Positions 14,113 to 29,166 of a stretch of 36,068 nucleotides of DNA are shown piece by piece (within the stretch, counting starts at the first letter, position 1; every line of letters begins with the position of its first letter). The translations under genes and the position numbers were made by a program. Under the pieces are notes generated by a model. It saw nothing but the letters and a program-made list of their open reading frames with translations. It made no database searches and was not told where the DNA came from. The stretch comes from a virus. The stretch spans positions 1 through 36,068 of the IMG/VR virus record IMGVR_UViG_3300010885_003030; one strand, written 5' to 3'.

Positions 14113-14940
14113 TTAAGCCAAACTGGCGTATAAATGGATCTGCAGGTTCAAAACAAACCCATTTTTGGCACAATATTGGGCTGCATACTCATGATTTATT
14201 TGGTTTTCCTTCATATCCAACAGTCCTTCTTCCCAGAAGCTGATGACCTCATCAACGGCACTGCGCTCTTCTAAAGTGATGCTATTCTTCTCGCTACGCA
14301 TCTGCTTGCTCTTCTGAGGTTCTCTGTTATAGATGTTCATTGGGCTGATGAATACCTTACGATCACCTCTTGCCCACTCTGGGATAGAACTATATGGGCT
14401 ATCCTGATCAGCATTCATGACGAACTTCAGACAATCAGCACGGGCAAGCATCTTGGGGTTGGGTTCTAGATATTTTACGGGCTTGCCATTCTTCTCTAGG
14501 CACTTGGGACTGACTACTAGTGTAGTTGAATCTGGAATGTTCTGTACGATAGTTCCGTTGCTTTCGATCTGTGTCCAAGCAAAGTGATCCTTGATATATT
14601 CAAGGAACATGCCAAGATTCTTCTGTAGCATTGGCTCACCACCAGTAATAACTAATCCAACCTTCTCACGGAACCATACAGGAACCTCTTCACCGAAGTA
14701 ATCTGCTACAGCCTTGAATATCCTTACTTCTAGTTCCTCAGGGGTTAGCCAGTCCCCTCCGTCGAAATAAGTATCACAGAAGCTACAGGCCAGATTACAC
14801 TTAGCAAGGCGAACGAATACTGCGGGTTCTCCACGATATGGTCCTTCTCCCTGTAGGGTATAGAATATGCTGGTGACAAACAACTTATCACCAGCAGCAT
14901 CGAAATATTTCTGTCCTACAATCTCGTTCTTACCAAACAT
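14113..14940 (-). CDS. queE: QueE, 7-carboxy-7-deazaguanine synthase
   Basis: Radical SAM enzyme that converts 6-carboxy-tetrahydropterin to 7-carboxy-7-deazaguanine (CDG). The cluster-binding cysteines are C48, C52 and C55 (CNLACSFC), the QueE-type approach FYTLQGEGPYRGEPAVFVRL is at 26-45, and GGEP is at 100-103. At 275 residues it is longer than many bacterial forms, with an insert around residues 150-180. It is the third enzyme of the set with QueD (15352) and FolE (16414) on the same strand. Its start codon is adjacent to the stop of the DNA glycosylase gene (shared boundary at 14940). Assignment is firm. Confidence 0.93.
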   Translation of the reverse strand: MFGKNEIVGQKYFDAAGDKLFVTSIFYTLQGEGPYRGEPAVFVRLAKCNLACSFCDTYFDGGDWLTPEELEVRIFKAVADYFGEEVPVWFREKVGLVITGGEPMLQKNLGMFLEYIKDHFAWTQIESNGTIVQNIPDSTTLVVSPKCLEKNGKPVKYLEPNPKMLARADCLKFVMNADQDSPYSSIPEWARGDRKVFISPMNIYNREPQKSKQMRSEKNSITLEERSAVDEVISFWEEGLLDMKENQINHEYAAQYCAKNGFVLNLQIHLYASLA

Positions 14941-15350
14941 TAGATTACCTTTTCTTTCTGCGGGTATCCAAGATACCTTCTCAATTCCTTATCCTGCGGC
15001 TCGAATCGTTCGCCCAACCAGAATATGCGATAACTCTCGCTACCATATTGTCCTATTCCATATAGCATGGTAGCATCCTTGCCATCCCACGTCAAATAAT
15101 CTCTGCTCATGCCTCGTATAGCACGTTCTCTGCGATTATAGAATCCCAGAGGACGAATGACTTCGATCACTTCCTCTGGGGTGCTATTTAGGTATGCTTC
15201 TTCGTCTGGCCAACGACTTAGGAACTCAGGTAGCACTGTCTTCACAGGCTTGCGCCCAGTCTGGTTCAGCATGATCACTCCTACCATGTGTTGCCACTTG
15301 GTATTCACTTGCTGCTGAACCATCAGATCATCGCAAAGAGGCTCTGCCAT
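14940..15350 (-). CDS. MBD4-like HhH-GPD DNA glycosylase
   Basis: 136 residues from the ATG at 15350, which I prefer because it follows the queD stop by 1 nt and has GAGGG upstream. Another start at 15383 would overlap queD. The protein matches the C-terminal glycosylase domain of MBD4: VIMLNQTGRKPVKTVLPEFL, then the hairpin LYGIGQYGSESYRIF at 96-110, then a candidate catalytic Asp in EPQDKEL (D120). MBD4 enzymes remove T or U from mismatches with G. It lacks the 4Fe-4S cysteines of EndoIII. Its position within a deazaguanine operon raises the idea of a role with modified bases, which is inference. Confidence 0.75.
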   Translation of the reverse strand: MAEPLCDDLMVQQQVNTKWQHMVGVIMLNQTGRKPVKTVLPEFLSRWPDEEAYLNSTPEEVIEVIRPLGFYNRRERAIRGMSRDYLTWDGKDATMLYGIGQYGSESYRIFWLGERFEPQDKELRRYLGYPQKEKVI

Positions 15351-15351
15351 A

Positions 15352-15903
15352 TTATCCCTCGTAGATTGCTGAGTTACCAGCATGTTCGAATACTTCAGCT
15401 GACTTAAGTCTCACAGTCTGCCCAATTGGATAACGCCCACCAATTTTTACCGTTTCGCCTACAGGATAACGATTGCTTGTATCCTTGTATGCATCTAGTA
15501 GACTTGCCATTGAATCATAACACATCTTAGCAAACATCTCACAGCCCACGCCAGGAACGATGCGTAGATCACATAATGCTCCACGCTCATAAGGTTGCCC
15601 GATAGTTTCGCCGTCATAGGCAATCGCCGCCATCTTCTTGAAGAAATCGAGATAAGGATCATCGGCAGCAATTACAAGTGTATGGTCAAACATAGCATCG
15701 GCCCATTCCTTAAACTGCTTTAGACCGCCAAAGTCAAAGACCCAATTGCGATCATCCAGTGTCTCGCTCTCGAAAACTAGCTTGATACCAATGCTGTACC
15801 CATGAAGTGTACTACAATGACTATGCGTAGCACGCCACTGACGAAAGCAACAACTAAGCCCTCTGTCTGTTCCATAAGTCTTAGTTGAATAATACTTTGC
15901 CAT
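15352..15903 (-). CDS. queD: QueD, 6-carboxy-tetrahydropterin synthase
   Basis: Second enzyme of 7-deazaguanine synthesis, acting on the FolE product. The family pattern is clear: CFRQWRATHSHCSTLHGYSI near residues 19-38 with the zinc histidines (H27 or H29, H34 and neighbours), WVFDFGGLKQFKEW, a FDHTLV strand, and VGCEMFAK. Residues about 143-165 hold an unusual 11-residue tandem repeat (RYPVGETVKIG then RYPIGQTVRL) that I do not know from other QueD proteins. The stop is 1 nt before the glycosylase ATG, and the start touches the end of the 102-aa gene. Confidence 0.9.
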   Translation of the reverse strand: MAKYYSTKTYGTDRGLSCCFRQWRATHSHCSTLHGYSIGIKLVFESETLDDRNWVFDFGGLKQFKEWADAMFDHTLVIAADDPYLDFFKKMAAIAYDGETIGQPYERGALCDLRIVPGVGCEMFAKMCYDSMASLLDAYKDTSNRYPVGETVKIGGRYPIGQTVRLKSAEVFEHAGNSAIYEG

Positions 15904-16211
15904 TATCTTGTAATTCCTTTACGTAGCATTTCCATTGTAATTGCCTGTGCCACACGCTCTTCAAAATTCTCATTCTGACTGATGACATGTAGTGCATAAT
16001 CACTGCGATCCTTATTATGATCATAGTGTCTAAACTCCAAAACAGTACCGCCATCAGCACCGTAGATACTTAGACTTAAGCCATTCGAATCTAATCCTCC
16101 ACGTGGAGATGCTGCTGACAACGTAACATAGGTACTGGGATTTACCGGTTCATCACGAGTCATCCACGCTTCTTTACACTTCCGTCTAAACCAATTATCG
16201 AACCACTTCAT
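15903..16211 (-). CDS. Hypothetical protein, 102 aa, in the deazaguanine operon
   Basis: It begins MKWFDNWFRRKCKEAW, contains a probable beta-rich core (TYVTLSA, SLSIYGADGGTVLEFRHYD) and ends in a helix (ERVAQAITMEMLR). It overlaps the 69-aa gene above by 4 nt and the queD start below by 1 nt, so it is a member of the folE-queD-queE transcript. No enzyme motif is visible. Position is the only hint of function. Confidence 0.65.
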   Translation of the reverse strand: MKWFDNWFRRKCKEAWMTRDEPVNPSTYVTLSAASPRGGLDSNGLSLSIYGADGGTVLEFRHYDHNKDRSDYALHVISQNENFEERVAQAITMEMLRKGITR

Positions 16212-16417
16212 TTCTCGATCTCCGTAATCTTCTTTCTTCCCATGGTATGGTTAACTCTTGCGCGGATCTGAGCATTTTCCCAGGTCCAACATTCTCCAGT
16301 ATCGTCCTGAAAACAGACCCACATGAGATCATGCTCTGGTCCGTAATCGATTAGAAAGTGTGCTAACGCACGACCTTTGGGAGTCATCAGTGGGATTGGT
16401 GGATCTATTCTAGTCAT
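16208..16417 (-). CDS. Conserved phage hypothetical, 69 aa
   Basis: It begins MTRIDPPIPLMTPKGRALAHFLIDYGPEH and contains DDTGECWTWENAQIRA. I recall close relatives scattered in phages of proteobacteria, always unannotated. It overlaps folE above (ATGA-type, 16414-16417) and the 102-aa gene below by 4 nt, so it is translationally coupled. Function unknown. Confidence 0.7.
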   Translation of the reverse strand: MTRIDPPIPLMTPKGRALAHFLIDYGPEHDLMWVCFQDDTGECWTWENAQIRARVNHTMGRKKITEIEK

Positions 16418-17097
16418 CGAGCATACTCCTGCTGTAACTTAATGTTGTCGAAGAATTCTTTCTTCGTACCTGCATCCTCATTGAACGCACCTTTAAGCAC
16501 TGTAGTCTGTGTCAATGAACTGTGTGCCATAATGCCTCTGTTCTCACAGCAGCCGTGAGTTGCCTGTATATAAACAGCAACATTTTCACTGCCAGTTGCC
16601 TTCTGAATCTCGCGAGCAACATCGTTGCAAAGTTCTTCTTGTAGTGTTCCGCGACGAGCGCACCACTGTGCAATGCGTGTATACTTGCTTAGACCAATCA
16701 ACTTTTTAGCAGCAATGATTCCAATATAAGCAACACCACTCACTGGCTGATGATGATGGCTACACATTGACTTTAGTTCACTGCGAACGACCAACATGCC
16801 AGTATAAGCATCATCGCCATCATTGGGAAAGCTTGTTGCATCTGGGGCGGGATTGTACCTGCCGCTCATCACTTCATTGAAGTACATCTTGGCCAGACGC
16901 TTTGCAGTGCCTTTGCTGTTTGGATCAGTCTCACGATCAATGACAAGTGCATCTAATACTTGCTCGAATGCACTGGCTGTTTCTTCGATCAAACGATCAT
17001 ACTCATCAAAATAGATATACTCTGAGATATTATCGCCGGCCCAATAGCGGCCACCAGCAGTCTTAATACGATTACGAATAGTTTCTGAAACGCTCAT
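16414..17097 (-). CDS. folE: GTP cyclohydrolase I (FolE)
   Basis: Converts GTP to dihydroneopterin triphosphate, the first step for both folate and 7-deazaguanine. The 227-residue protein has the zinc ligands C112 and the HHH at 114-116 (MCSHHHQPVSG), the GLSKYTRIAQWCARR strand-helix, and GCCENRG at 182-188 with the second cysteine. It opens the operon that also holds queD and queE, so its role here is 7-deazaguanine synthesis rather than folate. An AAGGAAAT site precedes the ATG, and a sigma70-like promoter lies at 17142-17170. Confidence 0.92.
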   Translation of the reverse strand: MSVSETIRNRIKTAGGRYWAGDNISEYIYFDEYDRLIEETASAFEQVLDALVIDRETDPNSKGTAKRLAKMYFNEVMSGRYNPAPDATSFPNDGDDAYTGMLVVRSELKSMCSHHHQPVSGVAYIGIIAAKKLIGLSKYTRIAQWCARRGTLQEELCNDVAREIQKATGSENVAVYIQATHGCCENRGIMAHSSLTQTTVLKGAFNEDAGTKKEFFDNIKLQQEYAR

Positions 17098-17141
17098 CTA
17101 ATTTCCTTATGATCACGCAGTAGGTATTGCGATATAATGTT

Positions 17142-17170
17142 AATATACTTTATTTAGGCCTGAGAATCAA
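17142..17170 (-). promoter_or_regulatory. Sigma70-like promoter for the folE-queD-queE operon
   Basis: Minus-strand TTGATT (17170-17165), a 17-bp spacer and TATATT (17147-17142). The -35 is inside the 3' end of the sulfotransferase-like gene. The predicted leader before the folE ATG is about 38 nt. The -35 is a weaker match than the others in this window. Confidence 0.6.
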
Positions 17171-17852
17171 TAATAAAATCTTCTTCGGGAAAAATTTGAG
17201 GAAATTTAAATTGATAGTAATTGAAAATTTCACTACCTATTCTTTTGAAGAAATTTGCATCTTCGATTCGATTCCATTTATCGAAAGGTTGAGAAACGGG
17301 TAAAATAAAGTCATGTGGGCGCGGATGTGGCTCAAGATTTAATCTCTTATTAATAGAATCCATATCGATGGCTTCTTTGTAATTTATAACAATAGATTGA
17401 TCCAGTAGTTTCTCTGTAAATATGTACCAATTTATAGTTTTAAATAGTTCATTGATGAATTCATCTAGTTGCAATCGAAATTTTACATCTTTATACAATC
17501 GAATATATTTGTTTAAGTTCATAACATTTTGGCTTTCGATATCACCAAAATGGAAAACATTTGTTTTTCTTGCAATCAAATGACTTAATGCAATCTCAAC
17601 AGGATTTCTTCTTATTATAATAGTTTGTCGATTTTCTTTAAAATAATCAATCAATGGAATATGATGAATGTGTAGTACTACATATTCATCAACTGAAATT
17701 TCTTCTTTTTGATCTAAACTAAGATTGCTTGTTTCTGTGATTGTTTTTGTATAATAATCGTTAGTTATTGTCATGATGTTCTTGTGCTGCATGATATACG
17801 CAGTAGTAAAGAAACTGCCACATCTACCTGGGCTTGCCACTAGATAATTCAT
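17154..17852 (-). CDS. Sulfotransferase-like P-loop protein, 232 aa
   Basis: I chose the ATG at 17852 because it overlaps the glycosyltransferase stop by 4 nt (ATGA). The N-terminus NYLVASPGRCGSFFTTAYI resembles the 5'-phosphosulfate-binding loop of sulfotransferases. Further on, TIIIRRNPVEIALSHLIA matches the 3'-phosphate-binding strand-helix (usual form RxPxxxxxS). The rest is divergent. Such enzymes move sulfate from PAPS to glycans or small molecules. A neighbouring APS-kinase-like protein (20644) could supply PAPS. Some phage P-loop proteins of this fold may have other roles, so substrate and activity are unproven. Confidence 0.65.
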   Translation of the reverse strand: MNYLVASPGRCGSFFTTAYIMQHKNIMTITNDYYTKTITETSNLSLDQKEEISVDEYVVLHIHHIPLIDYFKENRQTIIIRRNPVEIALSHLIARKTNVFHFGDIESQNVMNLNKYIRLYKDVKFRLQLDEFINELFKTINWYIFTEKLLDQSIVINYKEAIDMDSINKRLNLEPHPRPHDFILPVSQPFDKWNRIEDANFFKRIGSEIFNYYQFKFPQIFPEEDFIIDSQA

Positions 17853-18928
17853 TTTGAACACACTATGGTTTCATAAAGTTTTGAACCATCGAAGAAATTG
17901 CCAGTTGATGCATTATTTAAACTTCGAATTGTACGTGGAAGATCTTCATTATTACTACCCATGATATTGTGTATTCTTTCCATCAAACGATTCTTATTAC
18001 GCTGATAAGAATCCCAATTTTTAGACCAATCGCTGGGATACTTAAAGAATGTGTCCCACATCTCATCATAGCTAAGACGATTAGGTACCAGTGGATAAGT
18101 TCCAACAATGGCACCTTCATAAACTGAGATACCCAGCGTTTCCTGTAAGTTGGCACTGAACACAATCTTACTTTCGGCTAGGTGTGTATGATATTCATGC
18201 TTGCTCAACTGATGGTCCTGTGCGACGAACCATTCATATTCTGGCATCGATGCAGCAAGATCATTGAAGATCTCCAGCTGCTTCTCAGGAGCAAGACGAT
18301 GGGGGAAAATAATCTTATCCTTCTTTGCGGTATTGACATATGGCTTAAGAATATTGTTTAGATATTCCATTGGCCAACCAACAATATGAATTTTATCTGG
18401 ATGCCATTCCATCATCTTATCGCTAAATGGTTCATCGAACAGATTCAAACAAAACATATCAAGATGGAATTTAGTAGCAAAGAAGTTATGATCATAACAA
18501 TAGAACATGCTAGATTCGGCATTACGTACCCATGCAGCATCTCCAATCAAACGACCAAGAAAGTCTTGTGGATCATAACTTCCAGCATGCCACATGCCTC
18601 CTAATTTAACAGGAATACCCAGTAGTTCGCTCATATACTTTACTTGAATAACAGTTGGATTCCAAGCATCTGTATAAAGGAAGTAATCACCTGCCTTAAC
18701 TGTACCGTTGGCAAACAATTCTGATATCTTTAGCAATTGTTGGCTCTTATAACTGTTTGTTCCAGCAAAGTTTAGGAATGCACCGGGAGTAGTAGATTGC
18801 GGAACATCCCCTCCGCTAATTACAACGACATCCATGCCTGCTGTTTGCATCTGATTAGGAAGATACTGCTTCCATTGTGCTGTGTAACGTGTTTCAACGG
18901 CTTCTAAATCTACTAGATAAACTGTCAT
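17849..18928 (-). CDS. GT-B fold glycosyltransferase, 359 aa
   Basis: Two Rossmann-like halves fit a GT-B fold. The C-terminal donor-binding half shows KDKIIFPHRLAPEKQLEIFNDL, then NLQETLGISVYEGAIVGTYPLVPNR, the typical E-x7-E-like nucleotide-sugar site of GT4-type enzymes (E in QET and YEG). No membrane segment or signal is present, so it works in the cytoplasm. It is coupled by overlap to both the sulfotransferase-like gene below and the 91-aa gene above (4 nt each). The acceptor could be modified DNA, a protein or a surface glycan, and the sequence does not decide. Confidence 0.75.
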   Translation of the reverse strand: MTVYLVDLEAVETRYTAQWKQYLPNQMQTAGMDVVVISGGDVPQSTTPGAFLNFAGTNSYKSQQLLKISELFANGTVKAGDYFLYTDAWNPTVIQVKYMSELLGIPVKLGGMWHAGSYDPQDFLGRLIGDAAWVRNAESSMFYCYDHNFFATKFHLDMFCLNLFDEPFSDKMMEWHPDKIHIVGWPMEYLNNILKPYVNTAKKDKIIFPHRLAPEKQLEIFNDLAASMPEYEWFVAQDHQLSKHEYHTHLAESKIVFSANLQETLGISVYEGAIVGTYPLVPNRLSYDEMWDTFFKYPSDWSKNWDSYQRNKNRLMERIHNIMGSNNEDLPRTIRSLNNASTGNFFDGSKLYETIVCSK

Positions 18929-19200
18929 GATCTTTCCTTATAATAGTTACTGGCCATCCAATGCATCAAGCAAATGAGTCCTTGACCTTCTTGTTTAAAT
19001 TTTACTGTAATCATACGATAATCTTTATACTCAGGATTAACAATAATAGCATAGTCCTCATACAACTTCAAATTTTCTCTCTGAAGCAATGCTTTCAGTC
19101 CTGTCAAGGTCGCATTGCGATTATGCCAACTTCCCGCTTTATGGCCTATCAATGGAAAGTCGATGGATTCCCAATTTTCGGTTAACCACAGTTCATTCAT
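18925..19200 (-). CDS. Hypothetical protein, 91 aa
   Basis: Begins MNELWLTENWESIDFPLIGHKAG and ends MHWMASNYYKERS. It appears to be a mixed alpha/beta cytoplasmic protein with no recognised motif. It overlaps the glycosyltransferase gene by 4 nt and the radical SAM gene above by 8 nt, placing it between two enzymes in one transcript. A sigma70-like promoter within the radical SAM gene (19238-19266) would give it a short leader with AGGAAA, so it can also be expressed separately. Confidence 0.65.
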   Translation of the reverse strand: MNELWLTENWESIDFPLIGHKAGSWHNRNATLTGLKALLQRENLKLYEDYAIIVNPEYKDYRMITVKFKQEGQGLICLMHWMASNYYKERS

Positions 19201-20449
19201 ATTTCCTAAACTCTTCTACTAGCCATGGGAAAAGTATAGTATAATCAGTCTTTCGTCTCTTGTCAAGTGTTTCTAGATAAAACTTTAATTTCGATATTTC
19301 TTTAGTATTTGGTTGAGTGTTTTCAATTTGTTTTCTAATGCCATTCATATATTTTTGTGCAGTACGTGCATGTTCTGTATTATCCAACATTAGAGATTCG
19401 ATGATATCAAAATCTTTATCAAATACCCCGGCACCAAAGATGTCAGGATTTAAAAAAGTGGGATCCTGTACTGTCATGAAGTTATTGTATATTGGCCTAA
19501 TGCTACTCCACTGTCTCATATTTGACAATAAGTCAGGCATTGTTTTGATACTGAGTCCACACATAGCATGGTTTACTTGTAGTCTGACCCATTTTAATTT
19601 GAGCAATTTTTCAAAATTTCTTTGCCACTGTGCTAGATTCAATCCTGATCTTACATATTCCTGTTGTGGACCCCAGCAATCTAGACTTGCAGTTACTTGT
19701 AATGCACTAAGTTTTCTCTTGCCAACTAACTTTGCAAATCTATCGATGAAATAGTCCATCTTTGTATCACCGATGCTTAAATTTGTAATGATGACAAATT
19801 CAAGATTGGGATTTGGATTCTCTTCGAAGAAATCCAGGCATTGTATAAATTCTTCCTGCATAAAAGGTTCTCCACCTAATATATGGAAACTTTTTACATT
19901 ATGATGATTTTCTTTAAGCCATTCAAACAATTTCACGACCATCTGATCATAATCTTTATTTAAATTGAATGTATGCATTATTTCAGAATGATTGTCTTTG
20001 TTAAAAATTTGGCCATGCTTAATATATTCAGATTCGATCTTACTACTAAACCATGGGCCGCAATAGATGCATTTTAGATTACATGTATTGTTAAAATAAA
20101 CTTCTAGCACAGTGGGAGTAACTTTGATCGCAGTGGGATCTGTCAGTAATTCGACTGGAGTAAGATTTTCATATTCTTCGGTCATATGCATTTGTCTATC
20201 ACTATAACCATTTGCATCTTCGATATTTCTACAATATTCACAGCCGCCGCCTGGCCAAGTTCCTTCAGCCATGAGTTTACGATCATTTAGTTTACGTGGC
20301 AGATTATGAAAGTCTTTGAATGTATCTAGTGTTAGCGTATCATGCTTAACACGATGACAACTAGCAGTGGTTGATTTACTTAGGTAGATAGTGCTCCATG
20401 CCCATTTTTGTCTACAGCCAGGAGATTTTTGAAAAGGAAAGTTACTCAC
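19193..20449 (-). CDS. Radical SAM protein of the twitch/SPASM type, 418 aa
   Basis: The SAM cluster motif CNLKCIYC uses C123, C127 and C130. A GGEP motif follows in FHILGGEPFMQEEF. Extra cysteines before the core (C12, C31, C70 and C73, in GGGCEYC) fit an auxiliary cluster of the twitch/SPASM kind, here placed N-terminal. I recall radical SAM proteins of this type, labelled as twitch domain-containing, in marine phages and uncultured bacteria, with no known substrate. SPASM/twitch relatives modify peptides or sugars. It lies in a run with a glycosyltransferase and an APS-kinase fusion. Class is firm, reaction unknown. Confidence 0.85.
   Translation of the reverse strand: MSNFPFQKSPGCRQKWAWSTIYLSKSTTASCHRVKHDTLTLDTFKDFHNLPRKLNDRKLMAEGTWPGGGCEYCRNIEDANGYSDRQMHMTEEYENLTPVELLTDPTAIKVTPTVLEVYFNNTCNLKCIYCGPWFSSKIESEYIKHGQIFNKDNHSEIMHTFNLNKDYDQMVVKLFEWLKENHHNVKSFHILGGEPFMQEEFIQCLDFFEENPNPNLEFVIITNLSIGDTKMDYFIDRFAKLVGKRKLSALQVTASLDCWGPQQEYVRSGLNLAQWQRNFEKLLKLKWVRLQVNHAMCGLSIKTMPDLLSNMRQWSSIRPIYNNFMTVQDPTFLNPDIFGAGVFDKDFDIIESLMLDNTEHARTAQKYMNGIRKQIENTQPNTKEISKLKFYLETLDKRRKTDYTILFPWLVEEFRKYE
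19238..19266 (-). promoter_or_regulatory. Internal sigma70-like promoter before the 91-aa gene
   Basis: Minus-strand TTGACA (19266-19261), a 17-bp spacer and TATACT (19243-19238), all inside the 3' end of the radical SAM gene. The leader of about 31 nt contains AGGAAA before the ATG at 19200. It would drive the glycosyltransferase and sulfotransferase-like genes. Confidence 0.75.
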
Positions 20450-20681
20450 TTGAAGTACCCCAGTTGATTCTTAACCACGCTCTTTCGTGTAGCCAATACA
20501 ATGCTACTTTAGTACAAAATTCTACAGCAGTAATAGTAGCGGCGATAACTGGATGACCAGTTATCAACCAACTTAGTAAGAATGTATCTAGGCTTCCAAC
20601 GAATCGCCAAGTGATTGCTTTGACTAAACTTCTGGTACTATTCTCAGTCAATGCCCATTTCCTTACGTATCTTAGTAGCAC
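20442..20681 (-). CDS. DUF2061-family small membrane protein, 79 aa
   Basis: RSLVKAITWRFVGSLDTFLLSWLITGHPVIAATITAVEFCTKVALYWLHERAW is the DUF2061 pattern, here split by two hydrophobic segments. DUF2061 proteins are predicted inner-membrane proteins of unknown function that in bacteria often sit near sulfate-assimilation or APS-kinase genes. Here the gene overlaps the end of an APS-kinase-like fusion by 38 nt and the radical SAM start by 8 nt. I give the ATG at 20681; a TTG at 20651 is possible. The genomic link with sulfur genes is from recollection. Confidence 0.75.
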   Translation of the reverse strand: MLLRYVRKWALTENSTRSLVKAITWRFVGSLDTFLLSWLITGHPVIAATITAVEFCTKVALYWLHERAWLRINWGTSSE

Positions 20682-21432
20682 TTATCGTAGTCACCGATTC
20701 ATCAAAAGTCTCTTCACCGCTAGTGTATCCCACACCACGCCCCCAGCCGATGTGTACAATGTTAGGAACGACTTGTATCTCATACTGACCTTGGTATAGA
20801 GGATCTAGATCTCTGCGGATGAAACGCTTTACTTGCTCGATCTCGAATGGATTAGACCCTTGCCACCCTTGTACATCACGAACTTGGATGATGACTTGAC
20901 CTGTTCGCTCCAGTAGGCGCTTAAACAACGCACGATGACCATCATGCCAAGGTTGCCAACGACCCAGCATCTGTACTGTTTCCCTGCGCCAATCAAAAAT
21001 CGGGCGGCGGCGTTCAGCACAGATATGATCCCATATAAAAGCAGCCCATTTGATAGCATTCTGTTCAGGCACACGGAAGTCATATAGACTAGGTTCGATA
21101 AATGCTTTGTTAGTATCTTCATATCGACCGCGATCGATAGTATCAATCCAAATGATCCAATCTGCTTTGAAGTTATTACGCATCTCAACAAGTGGAGCAA
21201 CAAAATCAGCAATCACAAAATCCATTGTACTTGCTTCTGCTAGTTCGCGCATACGTATGCTCTGTCGGATACGTCCACTTTCACTGAAATCCCAATCATT
21301 ATACTGTTGACGAACAGCATCAGCATTAAACCAATCCACAGTATAGAAATCTTTCTCCATACGCTTCTTTAGTTCTTGTGCTAGTGTAGTCTTACCTGCG
21401 CCTGGAAGTCCCATAATTAGAATTTTCTGCAT
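20644..21432 (-). CDS. APS-kinase-like / nucleotidyltransferase fusion, 262 aa
   Basis: The N-terminal half has a P-loop GLPGAGKT at 8-15, then NADAVR and DFSESGRIRQSIRM near 36-61, the positions of DGDxxR and GFSxxDRxxNIRR in adenylylsulfate kinase. The C-terminal half has the HxGH nucleotidyltransferase motif GRWQPWHDGH at 157-166 and ends with TTISATKIRK, like the ISSTxIR signature of NMN/cytidylyltransferases. A fused kinase and adenylyltransferase could make PAPS from sulfate, or could act in nucleotide or sugar activation. The domain calls are firm, the reaction is not. Confidence 0.82.
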   Translation of the reverse strand: MQKILIMGLPGAGKTTLAQELKKRMEKDFYTVDWFNADAVRQQYNDWDFSESGRIRQSIRMRELAEASTMDFVIADFVAPLVEMRNNFKADWIIWIDTIDRGRYEDTNKAFIEPSLYDFRVPEQNAIKWAAFIWDHICAERRRPIFDWRRETVQMLGRWQPWHDGHRALFKRLLERTGQVIIQVRDVQGWQGSNPFEIEQVKRFIRRDLDPLYQGQYEIQVVPNIVHIGWGRGVGYTSGEETFDESVTTISATKIRKEMGID

Positions 21433-21735: not shown

Positions 21736-21736
21736 A

Positions 21737-22159
21737 TTAAAGTTCCCATTTGATGTTACAGCCATTTTCATTATCTTCACTTACTTCGATTTCTACTGTC
21801 CTGCCAGGGTAACGAGTTGAAATTGTTTTGTACAAGTCTTCTGCAATCATTTCGCAACTCTTGTAGTCAAGTTGCAGTGTAGCTTCATTATAAAGATTTG
21901 TCAACCAGCGTTTAAACTGGATGAATTCAATGTCCCTATCGTCGTGGAATACTTCAATAGAAACACGGAAATGGAAAATGTGACGATGAGGATATCCAAG
22001 GAAGCTGACATCATACTCATCGCCTGTAGCCAACTTTGGATCATCTAAAGCAGCGGGATACTTGTGAATGCCCTCACGCTCAAACTTAACCCAAATCATG
22101 CTCTTACGTACTGTGGGCATACGATCAGTTACCATCTTCTTCTTCTTGAAAGGATTCAT
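21737..22159 (-). CDS. Conserved phage hypothetical, 140 aa
   Basis: I chose the ATG at 22159 (MNPFKKKKMVTD) because it follows the upstream stop by 1 nt. The ORF remains open further up. The motif SFLGYPHRHIFHFRVSIEVFHDDR and then IEFIQFKRWL suggests a compact beta-rich fold. The HRHxFHF histidines, with a later CEMIAEDLY, recall the general layout of the QueD/pterin-synthase (T-fold) family, but zinc and catalytic residues do not line up clearly, so I leave function open. Such a paralogue would be notable in a phage with queD. Confidence 0.65.
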   Translation of the reverse strand: MNPFKKKKMVTDRMPTVRKSMIWVKFEREGIHKYPAALDDPKLATGDEYDVSFLGYPHRHIFHFRVSIEVFHDDRDIEFIQFKRWLTNLYNEATLQLDYKSCEMIAEDLYKTISTRYPGRTVEIEVSEDNENGCNIKWEL

Positions 22160-22160
22160 A

Positions 22161-22484
22161 TTAATTACGACCATTGTTTTGAGTCTCTTCGTATAGTTTA
22201 TAGTCTTCTGTATATGTGTCAAGTACTCTTTTGAGATTGACCACATCCTTGTGATCAGGGATTACATCATGCCATTCAACATCAGCACGACCAATTAGGA
22301 AATTAGCAGCCATCTTTAGCCGTTCCCAAAAATTGAGATGTCCTTTGTCGGATTGAAGCATGAAATAAAGTTCTGGTTCATCCTTTCCTACCCACTTATA
22401 ATAACTAACACGGATGAGATGCTCTGGGGCATGGCATTGACAGCCAATGTAGATTGTTTCGCTGTTGTCAGTATGTGTGCTCAT
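22161..22484 (-). CDS. Conserved phage hypothetical, 107 aa
   Basis: The core IYIGCQCHAPEHLIRVSYYKW followed by ELYFMLQSDKG and FWERLKMAANFLIGR is a pattern I recall from many unannotated phage proteins, in which a pair of Cys and a His near the N-terminus may bind metal. It is the first gene of a three-gene unit. The ATG lies exactly 6 nt below a TATATT -10 box, so the message may be leaderless. Confidence 0.7.
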   Translation of the reverse strand: MSTHTDNSETIYIGCQCHAPEHLIRVSYYKWVGKDEPELYFMLQSDKGHLNFWERLKMAANFLIGRADVEWHDVIPDHKDVVNLKRVLDTYTEDYKLYEETQNNGRN

Positions 22485-22490
22485 AGTGTT

Positions 22491-22519
22491 AATATACTAT
22501 GAGCACACTGGTTTGTCAA
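22491..22519 (-). promoter_or_regulatory. Sigma70-like promoter, leaderless configuration (107-aa gene)
   Basis: Minus-strand TTGACA (22519-22514), a 17-bp spacer and TATATT (22496-22491), then exactly 6 nt to the ATG at 22484. The -35 abuts the stop codon of the 942-aa outer-membrane protein gene. Confidence 0.8.
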
Positions 22520-25348
22520 TTAGAAATCTACCTTAAGACCAATAGTTCCAACTGCGGCCGTATAGTCCTTGCCCTTGTCGAAACCAACAGTGGCATTTAA
22601 GAATATGCCCTTGTCAATTTCAGTCTTGGCAACTAGTTTGATACCACCAACTGTTTTAAAATCCTTAGTCTGAGTGACCTTAGTTTCGAAACTGATGTTG
22701 TTGTCTAGATCATACTTTACACCAATGTATGGATTAACACTAGTAGATGATTTAACAGGGATAGTTGATAGCAATGAACTTCCCATTTCAACTACATTGT
22801 TAATCTGACTTTGATTTACAGTAACACCAATCAATGGACGGAAGCCATAATAAGTGTCTGCTGTATATAAAGTGATATCAGCATAGTATGTCTGCTGTTT
22901 GAACTTGGCGCTGTTGTATAAAGCAAATAGTGGGATTGAAGTTGTACCAGTATAACTGCTATTACCAGCACCTACTGAAGCCTTAATCCAAAAATCTTCC
23001 TGCTTGCTTAGAATATAACCAGTCACATTGTAATCAGTGACATCAACTGTTGCGCCAGTTAGACCGCTACTCTTTCCAGCAACATATGCGCCAGCAATGC
23101 CAAATGAATTGTTTTCAACAGTCCATTGATAACCTGCTGTTAGCCCACCTTTTGACATATTGCCCGCAGTCTTATAATATCCTGCTGTTGGGTCTGCCCA
23201 AGCACCATCCTTTTGATTCAATGCATCAACCAGGAACGGATTAGTATTCTTTACTTTTACAGCATCACTAAATCCAGTAGCACTAACACCTTTAACAACA
23301 TTATTACTTGTCTGTGTATAAGTGTCATTATTAACAGCACTGCTGACATTTTGATAGATTGTGTTACTGACATTTACTGGTGTTCCAGTGGTCACACTGG
23401 TAGTTGCACCATTCGCATCTTTATTTGTTGTAGTTGGAGTATGAGTAGTTACAGTAGTAATAGGTGTTGTGACCACTGTGGTTGTAGTTGATGGGTGATC
23501 AGTAATAACTGTAGTATTTTGATTGATGTTTAACATCTTACCTACTAGATTTTTAGTATAGGTAATGATCGAATTACTGCTAGTTGCCCAATTTACAGTG
23601 CTGCTAGAAGCAGTAGCAATTCCGCTTGTTGTATTAGTTGTAACAACATCTTTTGTTGTGGCAACATTCTGTATAGCAGGTTGTGTTATATTGGCAGTTA
23701 CCGTATTAGAAGTTGCCGAAGTTACGACTGGCGTACCATTTGCTGTTGTAGTAGTTCCATTACTGTAAGTTGTAACAGTAACAGGCGTAGTTGTAGTTGT
23801 AACTGTGTTTGGAGTAGTTGTAGTTGTAGTAACTGTGAAATAAGTTGTTACTACAGGATTACCGTTTGCGTCAACACTATTAACCAGACTAGTATTCTTC
23901 ACTGAAGTTACAGTCGGTGTTCCAACTGCATTACTTGATGTTACGATCGGTGTTCCGGGAGCAGTACTCACTACTGTTGGAGCAGCAGGAGCAGTGGCAT
24001 TATTAGGAGCAGTGCTACCAGCATTAGGAGCAATAGCACCAAATGGTGTAGTAAAGTTAAGTGTTGTACCTACATCTTTAGTAACAAAAAGTATTGGGCT
24101 ATTTGTTGTATCACCTTGATTGAATACCGCAAAGCCCAATGTATAAGTTCCGTCAGCATTGGCAGTGTAGTTTGCCAATTGCCAACCCGTTGCACCATAA
24201 CTGCCAGTTGAATAGTTACCTGTCCCTGGGCTTGTAAATCCAAGTAGTGCATATTCTTTATTGGCGCCATTAACAGTAGCAACCGTAGTGCCTGACTTAT
24301 TGACAAGAGAAGTCATGCTTCCATCATTGAATGGAACATAGTCAGTCGATACATACTGCCAAGCCATATGGAAGGTCTGACCATTTGTAAGTGTGATATC
24401 TTGTTTAATCCAAGCGGCATTAGTAGCAGCACCACCAGCGGCACTGATAGCAGCAGCCAATTCTGTCTTACTAGCAGCACTTAAGCCTAAAGAAGCAGCC
24501 ATTGCATCGAATGTATTGATATTAGCACCACTAGTTACTGTGCTATTAGTAGGCTGTAGACTAGCCATATATGTTCCAACTGGAGGAGTAACTGTCCAGC
24601 TATAACTGTTAGGGACACCGGGACCTTGTCCCTGTGTATTGAATCCAGTCATTCCACTGACAACACTTACACCAACACCTTGGTTAGCATTGTAAGTTCC
24701 GCTTGATTGTGTGCCTGTGCCGCCACCAGCAGTCCATGGTCCCAAGGTTCCTGTAGCAAAATCAGTATTGGTAGTTGAACTTGTAATGTTGGGAGCAGTT
24801 GGGGTTACGGGTGTTGGAGTAACAGTTACAGCCTGCCCTGCTGCTAATGGTGTAGTTGAACCACCCGCTGCTAATGTATTAACCTGTGCCAATGATGGAT
24901 TTAATGTTCCAGTCCAAGATACACCACTGGTGTTAGCGAACCCACTGGTCATGCTAAACAATTGTCCAGTATTATTATCATTGCCAACAAAGAAAAAATA
25001 GTCAGTGCCCATATTAATAATATGGCCAGTACCCATTACTACTTTTTGTACCCCCGCAGAATTATATTGTATAGCATTGTAGGGATTAGTGGCATTACCA
25101 GTTGCTGAAAATTTAACATAATCCCCCGCAGCCCATGTTAACTGTCCAGTAGTGAACGGTATCTTATAGACTGTTCCTGGGTTTTTGCTATAGATTTGAC
25201 AAGTGGTTGTATTCATACAGGCATTTACGTTCCATTGGCTATCTGCTATCTGTGCTTGGCCAAATTTTAGATCCGTAAAATCTGCATATGCTGATGTTGA
25301 AAATAAGCCAGCAAGGATTGCGGCTGTTTGAATGATCTTTTTAATCAC
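22520..25348 (-). CDS. Secreted outer-membrane protein with C-terminal beta-barrel (autotransporter-like), 942 aa
   Basis: Residues 1-22 are a Sec signal peptide (KKIIQTAAILAGLFSTSAYA, cleaved before D). A beta-rich passenger follows; residues about 195-440 resemble a jelly-roll domain of the kind seen in bacterial surface proteins (FATGTLGPWTAGG, later HMAWQYVSTDYVPFNDGS). Residues about 470-690 are a Thr/Val-rich linker. The last 260 residues have alternating aromatic strands (GLTAGYQW, FWIKASVGAG, YYADITLY) and end in KVDF, the terminal Phe that BAM recognises. The start is GTG, with GGAG 7 nt upstream. A phage-coded barrel could alter host surface or block superinfection. Passenger function unknown. 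Confidence 0.8.
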   Translation of the reverse strand: MIKKIIQTAAILAGLFSTSAYADFTDLKFGQAQIADSQWNVNACMNTTTCQIYSKNPGTVYKIPFTTGQLTWAAGDYVKFSATGNATNPYNAIQYNSAGVQKVVMGTGHIINMGTDYFFFVGNDNNTGQLFSMTSGFANTSGVSWTGTLNPSLAQVNTLAAGGSTTPLAAGQAVTVTPTPVTPTAPNITSSTTNTDFATGTLGPWTAGGGTGTQSSGTYNANQGVGVSVVSGMTGFNTQGQGPGVPNSYSWTVTPPVGTYMASLQPTNSTVTSGANINTFDAMAASLGLSAASKTELAAAISAAGGAATNAAWIKQDITLTNGQTFHMAWQYVSTDYVPFNDGSMTSLVNKSGTTVATVNGANKEYALLGFTSPGTGNYSTGSYGATGWQLANYTANADGTYTLGFAVFNQGDTTNSPILFVTKDVGTTLNFTTPFGAIAPNAGSTAPNNATAPAAPTVVSTAPGTPIVTSSNAVGTPTVTSVKNTSLVNSVDANGNPVVTTYFTVTTTTTTPNTVTTTTTPVTVTTYSNGTTTTANGTPVVTSATSNTVTANITQPAIQNVATTKDVVTTNTTSGIATASSSTVNWATSSNSIITYTKNLVGKMLNINQNTTVITDHPSTTTTVVTTPITTVTTHTPTTTNKDANGATTSVTTGTPVNVSNTIYQNVSSAVNNDTYTQTSNNVVKGVSATGFSDAVKVKNTNPFLVDALNQKDGAWADPTAGYYKTAGNMSKGGLTAGYQWTVENNSFGIAGAYVAGKSSGLTGATVDVTDYNVTGYILSKQEDFWIKASVGAGNSSYTGTTSIPLFALYNSAKFKQQTYYADITLYTADTYYGFRPLIGVTVNQSQINNVVEMGSSLLSTIPVKSSTSVNPYIGVKYDLDNNISFETKVTQTKDFKTVGGIKLVAKTEIDKGIFLNATVGFDKGKDYTAAVGTIGLKVDF

Positions 25349-25410
25349 AATATTTCTCCAAATGGATTAGATTCGTCGAAATACCATGATTAATTGAAAA
25401 ATCTACTGTA

Positions 25411-25935
25411 TTATTTATCTACAGTTTGATCTTTGGTGTACTGATCCCAATACGTATACTTGTCCTTATCCATTAGATCATGTAACTGATGTGTCCAAAC
25501 ACCTGGATTAGTCTTGCCCCAAGTTAGGTCATCGATCTTCAATGTGGTATTATAGTTGAACTGTTTGATATATGGCAGTTTAACACTGAGCATTGGGACA
25601 AAACGATCATGCTCGCATAATCCAGATTCAATCAATCCTTCTGCTTGCTTAACATCGAGATCCAAGGTGCACCAAAAATCTTCATCTAAACATGCCTTAA
25701 TCACATTTGCCCAGTTGTTCCATTCATCAGCATCGTTTACGCCGATATCAGGAAAGCTCTGGCTAGTGCCAAAATAGATATGTTCTACTTGGTATTGCCT
25801 GGCCTGTGATAGGATCTCTGCTACAGGGGGAGTGCCCACAACAAATAATGTAAACTTATCATAGCAAATAGTATGTTCTACTTCGAATCCGGTAAAATAA
25901 GTCACTGCCTGTCGTTCTTCTGTATTCAAGGCCAT
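25411..25935 (-). CDS. Conserved phage hypothetical, 174 aa
   Basis: Starts MALNTEERQAVTYFTGFEVEHT and has VEHIYFGTSQSFPDIG, then a helical region and an aromatic C-terminus. I recall proteins opening with this YFTGFEVE pattern in marine phages, usually next to a zinc-type alcohol dehydrogenase and an oxidoreductase, as here. It overlaps the dehydrogenase gene by 10 nt. No catalytic motif is visible. A role in the same pathway as its neighbours is inferred from context. Confidence 0.7.
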   Translation of the reverse strand: MALNTEERQAVTYFTGFEVEHTICYDKFTLFVVGTPPVAEILSQARQYQVEHIYFGTSQSFPDIGVNDADEWNNWANVIKACLDEDFWCTLDLDVKQAEGLIESGLCEHDRFVPMLSVKLPYIKQFNYNTTLKIDDLTWGKTNPGVWTHQLHDLMDKDKYTYWDQYTKDQTVDK

Positions 25936-26840
25936 ACCAAGTATCCTCTGCTGTATCCTGCTGGGCGATTAACGCCATCTTCAAATGCTTGTTGCCATTC
26001 TGTATTACGATTATAACCCCTAGTCCATAGCCCGTCAACTTTCATACCACAGTTCTGAATGTATGACACAGCCATGGTCATTGCAGTGTAGAATTCAGGA
26101 TTTCGTGGGCTTGGACATTTTATTGTACAATTCTTCCAAAGAAGATTGGCAAATGAAGTAGTCACAGCAGGATGTTTCTCTGCTGCTAATACGATAACGG
26201 CATTATCCTTCAGAACATCTTTAGTGAATACTGTATCATCCTGCTTGAGATCAATTACAACATCATACTGACCTGTAGGTTGATTAGCAAGTTCAATGTG
26301 ATCCTGCCAAAGATGACGATTGCTATTGCCAACTACAGTAATGGCACCATCATAAGAATGTATTAGCATAGTTTGAAACACGATCCAAGATAAGAAACCT
26401 GAACCCAGTATTAGCAAACGCTTGTTGTCAGTGTTATAAGTTGGAAACCCCTCTTCTGCAACATTGATGCCGCAAGCAATGGGTTCAATGATCCATTTGG
26501 GATCAAGTTCTGGAACAACTACAAAATCATATCTTCCAACATTATAATAATCGCTATATGCCGGCTCTCCGCGTGTTGCTACAAAGTCACCCACTGTTAC
26601 TAGTTCTAATCCGGGCCTATTAACATTCTTACCAACCTTAGTAACAATGCCTAAGCCTTCGTGTCCTTGCATATGTATGGGCAATGGACTAAAATTGCCC
26701 TGCATCATATCAATATCGCTACGACAGATACCAGTCATTGCAGCCTTTACTTCAATTTGATCCTCTGTAGGTTCAGGTTTATCCCAAACTGTTTCAACAA
26801 ACTTACCATCACCTGCTGTATAAAGAATCCTACTTCTCAT
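25926..26840 (-). CDS. Zinc-type alcohol dehydrogenase-like (MDR) protein, 304 aa
   Basis: I chose the ATG at 26840 over a TTG at 26852. The catalytic zinc site is visible: C39 in GICRSD, H60-E61 in MQGHEGLG, and C in EPIACG. The four-Cys structural zinc lobe is missing, which explains the short length (304 against about 350 usual). A Rossmann glycine motif lies in LLILGSGFLSW. MDR enzymes oxidise alcohols or sugars, or reduce carbonyls, with NAD(P). It overlaps the Gfo/Idh/MocA gene above by 11 nt, so the two are probably coupled, perhaps as consecutive steps in cyclitol or sugar metabolism. Confidence 0.82.
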   Translation of the reverse strand: MRSRILYTAGDGKFVETVWDKPEPTEDQIEVKAAMTGICRSDIDMMQGNFSPLPIHMQGHEGLGIVTKVGKNVNRPGLELVTVGDFVATRGEPAYSDYYNVGRYDFVVVPELDPKWIIEPIACGINVAEEGFPTYNTDNKRLLILGSGFLSWIVFQTMLIHSYDGAITVVGNSNRHLWQDHIELANQPTGQYDVVIDLKQDDTVFTKDVLKDNAVIVLAAEKHPAVTTSFANLLWKNCTIKCPSPRNPEFYTAMTMAVSYIQNCGMKVDGLWTRGYNRNTEWQQAFEDGVNRPAGYSRGYLVWP

Positions 26841-27717
26841 CGTATGGTCCAATCATATTGTGTATCCACAGATCTTGTGCAAGTTGATCTTGCCACCAAA
26901 TCTCATTAGTAAAATTGTCAAAAGCAGTTTCAATCATTGTCTTATATGCTGAAACTGGGCACAGCCCCAGTTCGAAACGACGCTCTCGATCACCATAAAA
27001 AATAATTGCTTGATCATCTTGTTCTAAACTACGCCAGTTAGCAGTTAGATTATAATGTACTTTACCAACAATTAATTCGAGCCTTGCATAATCGTCTACA
27101 TCATATAATCCATCTAGATTAATCGAACCATATGCTGTGCCTGAGAGATCGTTCAATTGCCATCTTTGTTCTTTTTCAAATTTTAAAAAATTACAATCTT
27201 GATATGTAGTTGGGTGTATTGCTGCAACCCAACTTAATAAGTGTGGCATTAGATCTCTACTAACTCCGCCAAAACTTAAATGACTACTAGTAAACCAACT
27301 ACCTGGGTTAGGCACACGATTATAGTTAATCCAGTTAATGTTTACTGTATCACTGACATTAGCAATTGCTTTGAAGAATGGCAATTCTTCGCGATATTGG
27401 TTATTCTTTACCATGATAAATTTAGTATCAGGATAGGAATCGACCATGATTTGCCAATCATGAGCAGTGCGAACACCTGGCTTTTCAACAAACACTATCT
27501 TGCTATGTTCTGCAACAAAATAAGCAAGATTTTCATGTGTATGATTTGGAGTACAGATGAACGTAGCATCGAATCTAGGATGAACATCCAATGCAAGTCC
27601 TACGCTTTTAAAATCAGCAGGACGAGTATTATCCACTGTTACAACTTCATGTCCTAAATCGCGGAGAACTTCTCTATAAAGTTCTCCGATTCCCATTCCA
27701 ATAATTAAACTCTTCAT
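26830..27717 (-). CDS. Gfo/Idh/MocA-family oxidoreductase, 295 aa
   Basis: The N-terminal Rossmann fold opens with SLIIGMGIGELYREVL. The family EKP motif is at 78-80 (FVEKPG). The C-terminal domain has GGVSRDLMPH at 150-159, placing D155 and H159 where the catalytic pair of the family is expected. Members use NAD(P) on sugars, inositols or sugar nucleotides. It sits 3 nt below the dpdA-like gene and overlaps the zinc-type dehydrogenase, so it shares a transcript with both. Substrate unknown. Confidence 0.85.
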   Translation of the reverse strand: MKSLIIGMGIGELYREVLRDLGHEVVTVDNTRPADFKSVGLALDVHPRFDATFICTPNHTHENLAYFVAEHSKIVFVEKPGVRTAHDWQIMVDSYPDTKFIMVKNNQYREELPFFKAIANVSDTVNINWINYNRVPNPGSWFTSSHLSFGGVSRDLMPHLLSWVAAIHPTTYQDCNFLKFEKEQRWQLNDLSGTAYGSINLDGLYDVDDYARLELIVGKVHYNLTANWRSLEQDDQAIIFYGDRERRFELGLCPVSAYKTMIETAFDNFTNEIWWQDQLAQDLWIHNMIGPYDEK

Positions 27718-27720
27718 ATC

Positions 27721-29166
27721 TCACTCAAATAATGCGTTGAACTGTGTGCTGGCATTTATAGTCTTCTTGCCAGTATAACCCCGCTGACCTACGATGTCAA
27801 TCCAGAATTTATTATGCTCTTCGATGAGATCTAAACTACGCTGATTATCTGCGTTTTTAATAATCTCATCGACAAGTTCACGAAATCTAATTCCAGTGTT
27901 CTTACGAATAAGCATACCTGGAACAACTCCCATATCATACTGTTCGTTGGCAGTAAGCACAGCATTAATATGCATCCAAGCATTATGTGCCATTTGGATA
28001 GCATAACTAAAACTGTCCCAACTGGTCTTGCCTTCCTTACCGATCATGTTTAAAGCGCCGGGGGCGTAAGTGCAAACGTCTTTTACTGTGATATGCTTGG
28101 ATATATGGCTATCCATAAAGGTAGGAATGATCCCATCATCGCGAGCAACATCTCCATATAGTCTGGTATCAGTTGCATATTTCTTGTTGTCAATCCCTGC
28201 TTCCATACCATAAGTCCATTTTGCATTATGTTCTATCCTCAGTTGATCATATACAAGACCTTTAGCATTAGCAAGGAATGGGCTTGCGCAATCAAAGCTA
28301 ATAGTAAAGTTCTCATTATGATATCTACGAACTGCACGTTGAACATCTGTCAACAACGTAGCCCATTCTAGCTTGCTAGTACCAAGAAAATGCATCCAAT
28401 CATGTGTGCCTTTTTCGAGCAGGCCATCGCGGATCATCTGTACGATGCGACGAAGAACAAGATGTATATCACACATATTCTGACCACCCATGGCCCAACC
28501 GTTAAAGTGTGTACCTGGATACAGTTTGGGATCGCAGAAGTCCTTCATCTGATTATACCAATCATCTGCTTCGGTATGATTCTCACCTTGTAGCACGTTT
28601 AGGAACTTACAACGTCCTGTGCGATGTTTCATCCAGTATTCGTTATTGATGCGTGTGCCTTTTACGGCTTCCGCGTAAGTGCTAATGCCAGTGGCACGAG
28701 CACCAGCAGGGCTACGAGCAACCCAAGCGGGAATATCAAGAACCATACCGTAATCCATATAAGCATCCATCCACTTAAGAACACCATCACGCTTAGAGTG
28801 CGCCCTAGGGCAATTAGGATCTCTCCAATCGCCTTCCCACACTCCTTTACCAATTTGGAATCCACCACTATCTCCTAATACGAAACTATTGGGATCACGA
28901 TTGCGAACCATTTCTTCTTTTTCTTCAGGACGCACATCTAGAATAGCATGTCCTGCAGAATATAGACACCATGGATAATAGAAGTAACTGATATCTGGAT
29001 CTAGGAAATCCAACCCTCTGATGCCGTTTTGCATCGATGGAGGAATTCTACTGGCCTGCATCTTCTTTCCATACTTACAGATCTGGAAAGTATAAAAACT
29101 ACTCAGTGCTGGTAGGAACACTGCGTAGTCTTTCTGACGTAACTTCATATTATCCTGAGGTATCAT
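27721..29166 (-). CDS. dpdA: DpdA-like DNA 7-deazaguanine transglycosylase (TGT family)
   Basis: DpdA proteins swap guanine in DNA for a 7-deazaguanine and are relatives of tRNA-guanine transglycosylase. This 481-residue protein has the base-binding DSGGFQ at 99-104, VLQGE at 191-195, GWAMGG near 223-228, and FDCASPF at 291-297, where D292 fits the nucleophile Asp of TGT (DCV/DSA-type). The Cys/His zinc cluster of tRNA TGTs is not seen. FolE, QueD and QueE are encoded 10 kb away on the same strand, the companion set expected for phage DpdA. It lies directly below the sliding clamp gene. The fold is firm, the DNA substrate very likely by context. Confidence 0.85.
   Translation of the reverse strand: MIPQDNMKLRQKDYAVFLPALSSFYTFQICKYGKKMQASRIPPSMQNGIRGLDFLDPDISYFYYPWCLYSAGHAILDVRPEEKEEMVRNRDPNSFVLGDSGGFQIGKGVWEGDWRDPNCPRAHSKRDGVLKWMDAYMDYGMVLDIPAWVARSPAGARATGISTYAEAVKGTRINNEYWMKHRTGRCKFLNVLQGENHTEADDWYNQMKDFCDPKLYPGTHFNGWAMGGQNMCDIHLVLRRIVQMIRDGLLEKGTHDWMHFLGTSKLEWATLLTDVQRAVRRYHNENFTISFDCASPFLANAKGLVYDQLRIEHNAKWTYGMEAGIDNKKYATDTRLYGDVARDDGIIPTFMDSHISKHITVKDVCTYAPGALNMIGKEGKTSWDSFSYAIQMAHNAWMHINAVLTANEQYDMGVVPGMLIRKNTGIRFRELVDEIIKNADNQRSLDLIEEHNKFWIDIVGQRGYTGKKTINASTQFNALFE

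What the first reader, a model, noticed from the sequence alone, without database searches (positions are those of the whole stretch)
14113..29166. Split 7-deazaguanine DNA-modification system without queC
FolE, QueD and QueE (14113-17097) make CDG, and a DpdA-like transglycosylase is at 27721-29166. DpdA with queuosine-pathway genes is an established phage DNA-protection system. No QueC, QueF or amidotransferase gene is seen, so the base placed in DNA may be CDG itself or preQ0 made with a host QueC. Splitting dpdA, beside the clamp, from the synthesis operon by 10 kb links modification to replication in gene order.
Basis: partly seen in the sequence, partly recalled or inferred. Interest (0 to 1): 0.85.

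Follow-up and report, generated by a model that had tools for sequence, protein, structure and literature searches.

The report
Phage DNA-guanine hypermodification gene cassette

Summary
The 481-aa protein is a TGT-fold enzyme with the catalytic residues intact (DpdA-like). No QueC lies in the window, but the window is 36 kb of a jumbo genome. Two complete cultured relatives, Pseudomonas phage PA5oct and Sinorhizobium phage Phosso, also have FolE/QueD/QueE/DpdA and no QueC.

The "split" is not a separation. Of 46 DpdA loci with 6 kb downstream, 46 have g169 and the transferase. In cultured phages g169 occurs in 11 lineages; all carry FolE and QueE, and none has full-length canonical QueC. g169 and the transferase also accompany an unrelated DpdA subfamily (ACP17, X1, BUCT-ZZ01).

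Best reading: CDG, not preQ0, is the precursor; g169 converts or decarboxylates it; DpdA inserts it; the transferase and dehydrogenases probably elaborate it. The inserted base is unproven. dCDG and dDG are already known in phages (recalled; paper not held). A sugar on 7-deazaguanine would be new.

The parts
14113..14940 (-). QueE, 7-carboxy-7-deazaguanine (CDG) synthase, radical SAM with CNLACSFC (CX3CX2C)
   Evidence: phrog_2076 E 1.2e-50; PF04055; NCBIfam QueE models best but under cut-off; 63% identical to Phosso QueE
14940..15383 (-). MBD4-like HhH-GPD mismatch DNA glycosylase inside the operon (role in the system uncertain)
   Evidence: PF00730 1.6e-9; MBD4 in PDB E 2e-18; in 13 of 46 DpdA loci with 6 kb downstream
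15352..15903 (-). QueD, 6-carboxytetrahydropterin synthase (phage type, C-x3-HGY)
   Evidence: PF01242 and phrog_2389; Cys30 and the D73-H74 pair invariant in 10 phage QueD
16414..17097 (-). FolE, GTP cyclohydrolase I
   Evidence: PF01227 4.7e-39, phrog_2197
17849..18928 (-). GT4-type glycosyltransferase (359 aa), conserved member of the cassette
   Evidence: 46/46 DpdA loci; EX7E and R..EK motifs; Xanthomonas X1 homologue PF00534 8e-12; in phage records found chiefly with g169 (16 of 20 records)
21737..22246 (-). g169: QueD/PTPS-fold protein of unknown function (phrog_17812), probably converts or decarboxylates CDG
   Evidence: 46/46 DpdA loci; phrog_17812 1.5e-32; model pLDDT 90.3, top PDB hits E. 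coli QueD, VIA Z 12.4; invariant H26, H52, H54, S95-C96-E97, E122
25411..25935 (-). g174: conserved protein of unknown function, cassette member
   Evidence: 40/46 DpdA loci; directly upstream of the other-type DpdA in ACP17; in PA5oct follows the dehydrogenase pair (E 3e-63)
25926..26852 (-). Alcohol-dehydrogenase-like (MDR) protein, accessory cassette member
   Evidence: PF08240 1.2e-9; 76 of 80 relatives lie with DpdA, 80 of 80 with the Gfo/Idh gene; among annotated phages found in the PA5oct group; a viral protein named ADH N-terminal contains a g169-like domain
26830..27717 (-). Gfo/Idh/MocA oxidoreductase, accessory cassette member
   Evidence: PF01408 2.7e-8; always paired with the ADH gene in 80 loci and in PA5oct (E 8e-66)
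27721..29166 (-). DpdA-like DNA-guanine transglycosylase, TGT fold, catalytic residues intact
   Evidence: homologues in PA5oct, Vibrio 2.275.O and Phosso
29176..29904 (-). Sliding clamp (neighbour, not part of the modification system)
   Evidence: family annotated as sliding clamp in Phosso, E 1.5e-79; phrog_12062

Best explanation
The block 14113-29166 is one cassette for replacing guanine in phage DNA with a CDG-derived 7-deazaguanine that is then further elaborated. GTP is turned into CDG by FolE, QueD and QueE (inferred from orthology). Because QueC is missing, CDG is not taken to preQ0. Instead g169, a QueD-fold protein that keeps a likely metal-binding histidine triad, acts on CDG or a later intermediate; decarboxylation to 7-deazaguanine is the most economical reaction. 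DpdA exchanges guanine in DNA for the product (fold and active site shown; reaction inferred). The GT4 glycosyltransferase, with the Gfo/Idh and alcohol-dehydrogenase-like proteins and g174, probably makes and attaches a sugar-like group to the base or its precursor (inferred from co-occurrence across unrelated phages). The likely benefit is resistance to host restriction, as shown for other 7-deazaguanines in CAjan (PMC6884629).
For: FolE/QueD/QueE homology. DpdA fold and catalytic residues. Cassette: 46/46 DpdA-anchored loci with 6 kb downstream have g169 and the transferase, 39 FolE, 34 QueE; searched from g169 instead, 45/45 have DpdA and the transferase; searched from ADH, 76/80 have DpdA. 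g169 in 11 cultured-phage lineages, all with QueE and FolE, none with full-length canonical QueC. QueC-positive phages R5C, Motura, phi38:2 and 2.275.O have no g169 hit. DpdA, transferase and g169 are adjacent also in PA5oct, ACP17, X1 and BUCT-ZZ01, where in the last three DpdA is a different subfamily. g169 fold. PA5oct carries all members in three separate places.
Against: No chemistry was measured. The transferase was not seen beside g169 in some phages (phiST, RHph_I1_18, D479), so any glycosylation is not universal. If g169 yields plain 7-deazaguanine there is no obvious hydroxyl for a glycosyltransferase. A few relatives hold a distant PP-loop protein, one with a C(x)10CxxCxxC cluster. 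The window genome is incomplete. The viral-contig loci are related to one another, so their counts are not independent.
Confidence: 0.5

Rival explanations
1. The inserted base is plain 7-deazaguanine or CDG (g169 being the CDG decarboxylase, or inactive), and the glycosyltransferase, Gfo/Idh and ADH act on something else, for example another base or host glycans.
For: g169 also occurs without a nearby transferase in phiST, RHph_I1_18, D479 and Ahp1. dCDG and dDG are known phage bases and a CDG decarboxylase, DpdL, was predicted (Cui et al. 2023, recalled; paper not held).
Against: The transferase keeps company with DpdA and g169 across unrelated phages and with two DpdA subfamilies; Gfo/Idh, ADH and g174 co-occur with the set in PA5oct without synteny.
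Confidence: 0.32
2. Host QueC turns phage CDG into preQ0, so the DNA carries dPreQ0 or a derivative.
For: Many hosts have QueC, and host participation has been proposed (PMC6884629).
Against: QueC is absent from 9 of 11 cultured lineages that have g169 and only partly matched in the other two, whereas the QueC-positive phages examined lack g169. A conserved dedicated enzyme in its place argues against passive reliance on the host.
Confidence: 0.13
3. The pathway feeds host tRNA queuosine rather than phage DNA.
For: Some phages carry preQ0 genes without DpdA (PMC6884629).
Against: A transglycosylase of TGT fold without the CXCXXC zinc motif of tRNA TGT is embedded in the cassette and is far from tRNA TGTs in sequence.
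Confidence: 0.03

Closest known systems
Phage 7-deazaguanine DNA modification (DpdA with FolE/QueD/QueE/QueC; 9g, CAjan, Rosebush)
   Same: CDG branch of the queuosine pathway plus a TGT-fold DNA transglycosylase
   Different: No QueC, QueF or amidotransferase in the window; g169, a glycosyltransferase, two dehydrogenases and g174 instead; DpdA not found by our profile in 9g, CAjan, nt-1, Dp-1, CP220, HVTV-1 or 7-11
QueC-less phage systems such as Mycobacterium phage Bipper and Cellulophaga phage phiST
   Same: FolE, QueD and QueE without QueC; phiST also has a g169 relative
   Different: No glycosyltransferase cassette seen at those loci; different DpdA subfamilies
Pseudomonas phage PA5oct group (incl. 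Paride, MIJ3, Callisto)
   Same: DpdA, glycosyltransferase, g169, FolE, QueD, QueE, Gfo/Idh, ADH, g174; no QueC
   Different: Genes in three places; second QueD-like gene; no modification reported in the papers found
T4-type DNA glucosyltransferases
   Same: Glycosyltransferase encoded beside a DNA base-modification pathway
   Different: GT4-like protein, different base; no sequence match to solved structures

Membership tests
Phage 7-deazaguanine DNA-modification system | DpdA: TGT fold with catalytic aspartates | tested here: met
Phage 7-deazaguanine DNA-modification system | CDG synthesis genes FolE, QueD, QueE | tested here: met
Phage 7-deazaguanine DNA-modification system | 7-deazaguanine nucleoside in virion DNA | not testable with these tools
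   needs LC-MS
preQ0-type subgroup (CAjan, Rosebush) | QueC (PF06508 with SGGxDS and C(x)8CxxCxxC) | tested here: not met
   absent from the window and from complete PA5oct and Phosso; only partial PP-loop hits in contigs. The rest of the window's own genome is unseen.
tRNA-guanine transglycosylase (tRNA TGT) | CXCXXCX22H zinc site and sequence similarity to tRNA TGT | tested here: not met
   no CXCXXC in the 481 aa (direct reading); no TGT among PDB sequence hits
Named DpdA subfamilies (DpdA1, DpdA2, others) | Sequence similarity to phage 9g/CAjan, nt-1, CP220, HVTV-1 enzymes | tested here: inconclusive
   no match of profile A1 in those genomes; reference proteins were not compared directly by structure
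QueD (6-carboxytetrahydropterin synthase), for g169 | PTPS T-fold and metal-binding His triad | tested here: met
   (fold by predicted model; His triad by invariance)
QueD (6-carboxytetrahydropterin synthase), for g169 | Catalytic Cys before HGH/HGY | tested here: not met
   no invariant Cys upstream of H52-x-H54 in 31 sequences, unlike phage QueD Cys30
DpdL (predicted CDG decarboxylase, Cui et al. 2023) | Sequence identity with the published DpdL | not testable with these tools
   paper not held
GT4 glycosyltransferase | GT-B C-terminal motif EX7E with upstream R..EK | tested here: met
   Pfam PF00534 over cut-off only in the X1 and BUCT-ZZ01 homologues

The most novel reading that the evidence does not exclude
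These jumbo phages carry a glycosylated (or otherwise sugar-derived) 7-deazaguanine in DNA, made from CDG by a QueC-free route through the QueD-fold enzyme g169 and finished by a dedicated GT4 transferase and two dehydrogenases. This would be the first hypermodified 7-deazaguanine of that kind in DNA, and it is abundant in uncultured jumbo phages.
Probability: 0.38. Interest if true: 0.88.

Novelty: new variant of a known kind. Interest (0 to 1): 0.72.

Why it matters
It names a compact gene set, two members of which (g169 = phrog_17812, and g174) have no assigned function, that travels with QueC-less 7-deazaguanine systems. It predicts a DNA base beyond the simple 7-deazaguanines. Because the full set is in cultured, complete PA5oct-group phages and its core in Phosso, ACP17, X1 and BUCT-ZZ01, one LC-MS run and a few gene deletions would settle it. 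Sugar-decorated guanines would extend the phage anti-restriction repertoire of glycosylated bases from pyrimidines to purines.

Tried and rejected
Sequence-only search of DpdA against PDB found no TGT; only the fold search did. QueC hits in relatives: those read from 343-kb G051 and 197-kb G052 look like NAD synthetase, others like unassigned PP-loop proteins; one (G031, L082) has C(x)10CxxCxxC and could be a distant QueC relative. I took X1's 215-aa protein for a PIG-L deacetylase by eye; Pfam gave no support, dropped. Searched ORFs for an ADH-g169 fusion in 80 loci: none; the only sign is BFVD entry A0A6J5LEZ6. g169 against PDB by sequence profile: nothing. Papers on modified DNA of PA5oct: none found. 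The 2023 paper on dCDG/dDG is not held, so DpdL identity rests on memory.
Full report
OBSERVATION. FolE, QueD and QueE are real and form a tight operon on the minus strand: FolE-g69-g102-QueD-HhH-QueE, neighbours overlapping by 1 to 32 bases. The 481-aa ORF at 27721-29166 matches no family in Pfam, PHROGs, NCBIfam or PADLOC and no PDB sequence. Its AlphaFold model is confident (pLDDT 90.7) and its best structural matches are all tRNA-guanine transglycosylases (Foldseek 5e-6; VIA Z 20.2 over 300 residues, rmsd 4.2). DSGGFQ, the second Asp (D144), the GG loop and D292 are invariant or nearly so in 37 sequences including phages PA5oct, Vibrio 2.275.O and Phosso. The position that by my motif alignment corresponds to the preQ1-reading Glu235 of bacterial TGT is Gly in all 37, consistent with a substrate other than preQ1 (inference). 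The CXCXXC zinc motif of tRNA TGT is absent (direct reading).

WHAT VIRUS. The window is a whole 36,068-base linear virus record. Its DNA polymerase is closest to those of Phosso (469 kb), Agrobacterium Atu_ph07 (490 kb), Vibrio 2.275.O (349 kb) and the GAP32/121Q jumbo phages. So about a tenth of the genome is seen, and absence of a gene from the window proves little.

NOT A SPLIT. Eighty relatives of DpdA in viral contigs show a conserved order: polymerase, clamp, DpdA, (Gfo/Idh, ADH), g174, g169, glycosyltransferase, FolE, (QueD), QueE. Of 46 loci with at least 6 kb downstream of DpdA, 46 have g169 and the transferase, 40 g174, 39 FolE, 34 QueE; the median DpdA-to-FolE distance is 5.2 kb, against 10.6 kb here. 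Searching from g169 instead gave the same picture: 45 of 45 loci with 5 kb on both sides have DpdA and the transferase, 43 FolE. Searching from the ADH gene: 80 of 80 have Gfo/Idh, 76 DpdA, 75 g169. These contigs are related, so these are counts of synteny, not independent events.

INDEPENDENT EVIDENCE FROM CULTURED PHAGES. A relative of g169 occurs in 26 records of the phage collection at E 5e-7 or better, which I group into 11 lineages: PA5oct group, Phosso, RHph_I1_18, ACP17, X1, Bakedbeans, Ahp1_CNU-2021, D479, BUCT-ZZ01, phiST group, MA9V-3. All 11 carry QueE and FolE. QueC gave no hit in 9; D479 and X1 have only partial PP-loop matches. For scale, a tblastn with the window's QueE found 255 of 50,697 records, a lower bound. 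Phages that do have QueC (R5C, Motura, phi38:2, 2.275.O) show no g169 in the same search. The transferase has 20 hits, 16 of them in g169 carriers. In ACP17, X1 and BUCT-ZZ01 it sits with g169 and a transglycosylase of another subfamily (phrog_10773 in ACP17 and X1; DSGGLQ...YDSTTHT) that our DpdA profile does not detect and that aligns only at profile level (hhalign 3e-5). So the transferase and g169 follow the chemistry, not one genomic neighbourhood.

PA5OCT. This complete 287-kb phage has FolE and two QueD-like genes at 168-172 kb, DpdA-transferase-g169-QueE at 223-228 kb, and Gfo/Idh-ADH-g174 at 250.9-253.1 kb (HMM E 8e-66, 4e-86 and 3e-63 for the last three). It has no QueC and no QueF. 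The set is kept even where it is dispersed.

WHAT g169 IS. phrog_17812, unknown function. The predicted model (pLDDT 90.3) matches E. coli QueD first and archaeal PTPS/QueD by VIA (Z 12.4, rmsd 2.1). H26, H52 and H54 (PTPS-type His triad), S95-C96-E97 and E122 are invariant in 31 sequences; the QueD catalytic Cys is not there. Profile comparison with phage QueD aligns the purine-binding end (5.6e-6). So it is a QueD paralogue with, probably, another reaction. From memory, Cui et al. 2023 (NAR gkad657; not held) found dCDG and dDG in phages, and predicted a CDG decarboxylase, DpdL; g169 is a good candidate for that function, untested here. One viral protein in BFVD named 'alcohol dehydrogenase, N-terminal' contains a g169-like domain (43% identity), which would tie the ADH to the pathway.

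WHAT THE TRANSFERASE IS. GT4-like by motif (R..EK, EX7E), by weak Pfam matches and by stronger matches of its homologues. Its acceptor is unknown. The proposal that it decorates the 7-deazaguanine rests on co-occurrence only.

CALIBRATION. Shown: gene identities, DpdA fold and active site (on a predicted model), cassette conservation, g169 fold (predicted model), absence of QueC from two complete relatives. Inferred: CDG as branch point, g169 acting on CDG, sugar attachment, anti-restriction role (known for other 7-deazaguanines, PMC6884629). Hutinet et al. already noted that a QueC-less phage (Bipper) might carry CDG (PMC6884629), so a QueC-less system as such is not new; the g169 and glycosyltransferase cassette is what I found no description of in the papers searched.

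Noticed in passing
window 14940-15383 (-): MBD4-like mismatch DNA glycosylase (PDB MBD4 E 2e-18) overlapping QueD and abutting QueE; recurs near the cassette in other loci.
   Followed up: partly
window 20644-21432 (-): Fusion of an APS-kinase/AAA-like P-loop kinase with a nucleotidyltransferase-like (NMNAT-type) domain.
   Followed up: no
window 19193-20449 (-): Second radical SAM protein, near the glycosyltransferase; related radical SAM genes are plentiful in relatives, up to 11 QueE-profile hits in one 123-kb contig (G027).
   Followed up: no
window 17154-17861 (-): 235-aa P-loop protein (SPGRCGS start) that by eye resembles a sulfotransferase; only one weak homologue in the loci.
   Followed up: no
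window 224-6832 (+) and 22520-25348 (-): Huge glycine-rich repeat protein and a Thr/Ser-rich 942-aa adhesin-like protein; the latter is an insertion that widens the DpdA-FolE gap in this genome.
   Followed up: no
window 9894-9967 (-): tRNA-Gly (TCC).
   Followed up: no
L104 3459-3920 (Synechococcus phage BUCT-ZZ01): Xanthine-guanine phosphoribosyltransferase beside QueE, possibly salvaging the guanine that DpdA releases.
   Followed up: no
L082 (contig G031), L193 (contig G013): PP-loop proteins distantly related to QueC, in G031 near several radical SAM genes; L082 has C(x)10CxxCxxC.
   Followed up: partly
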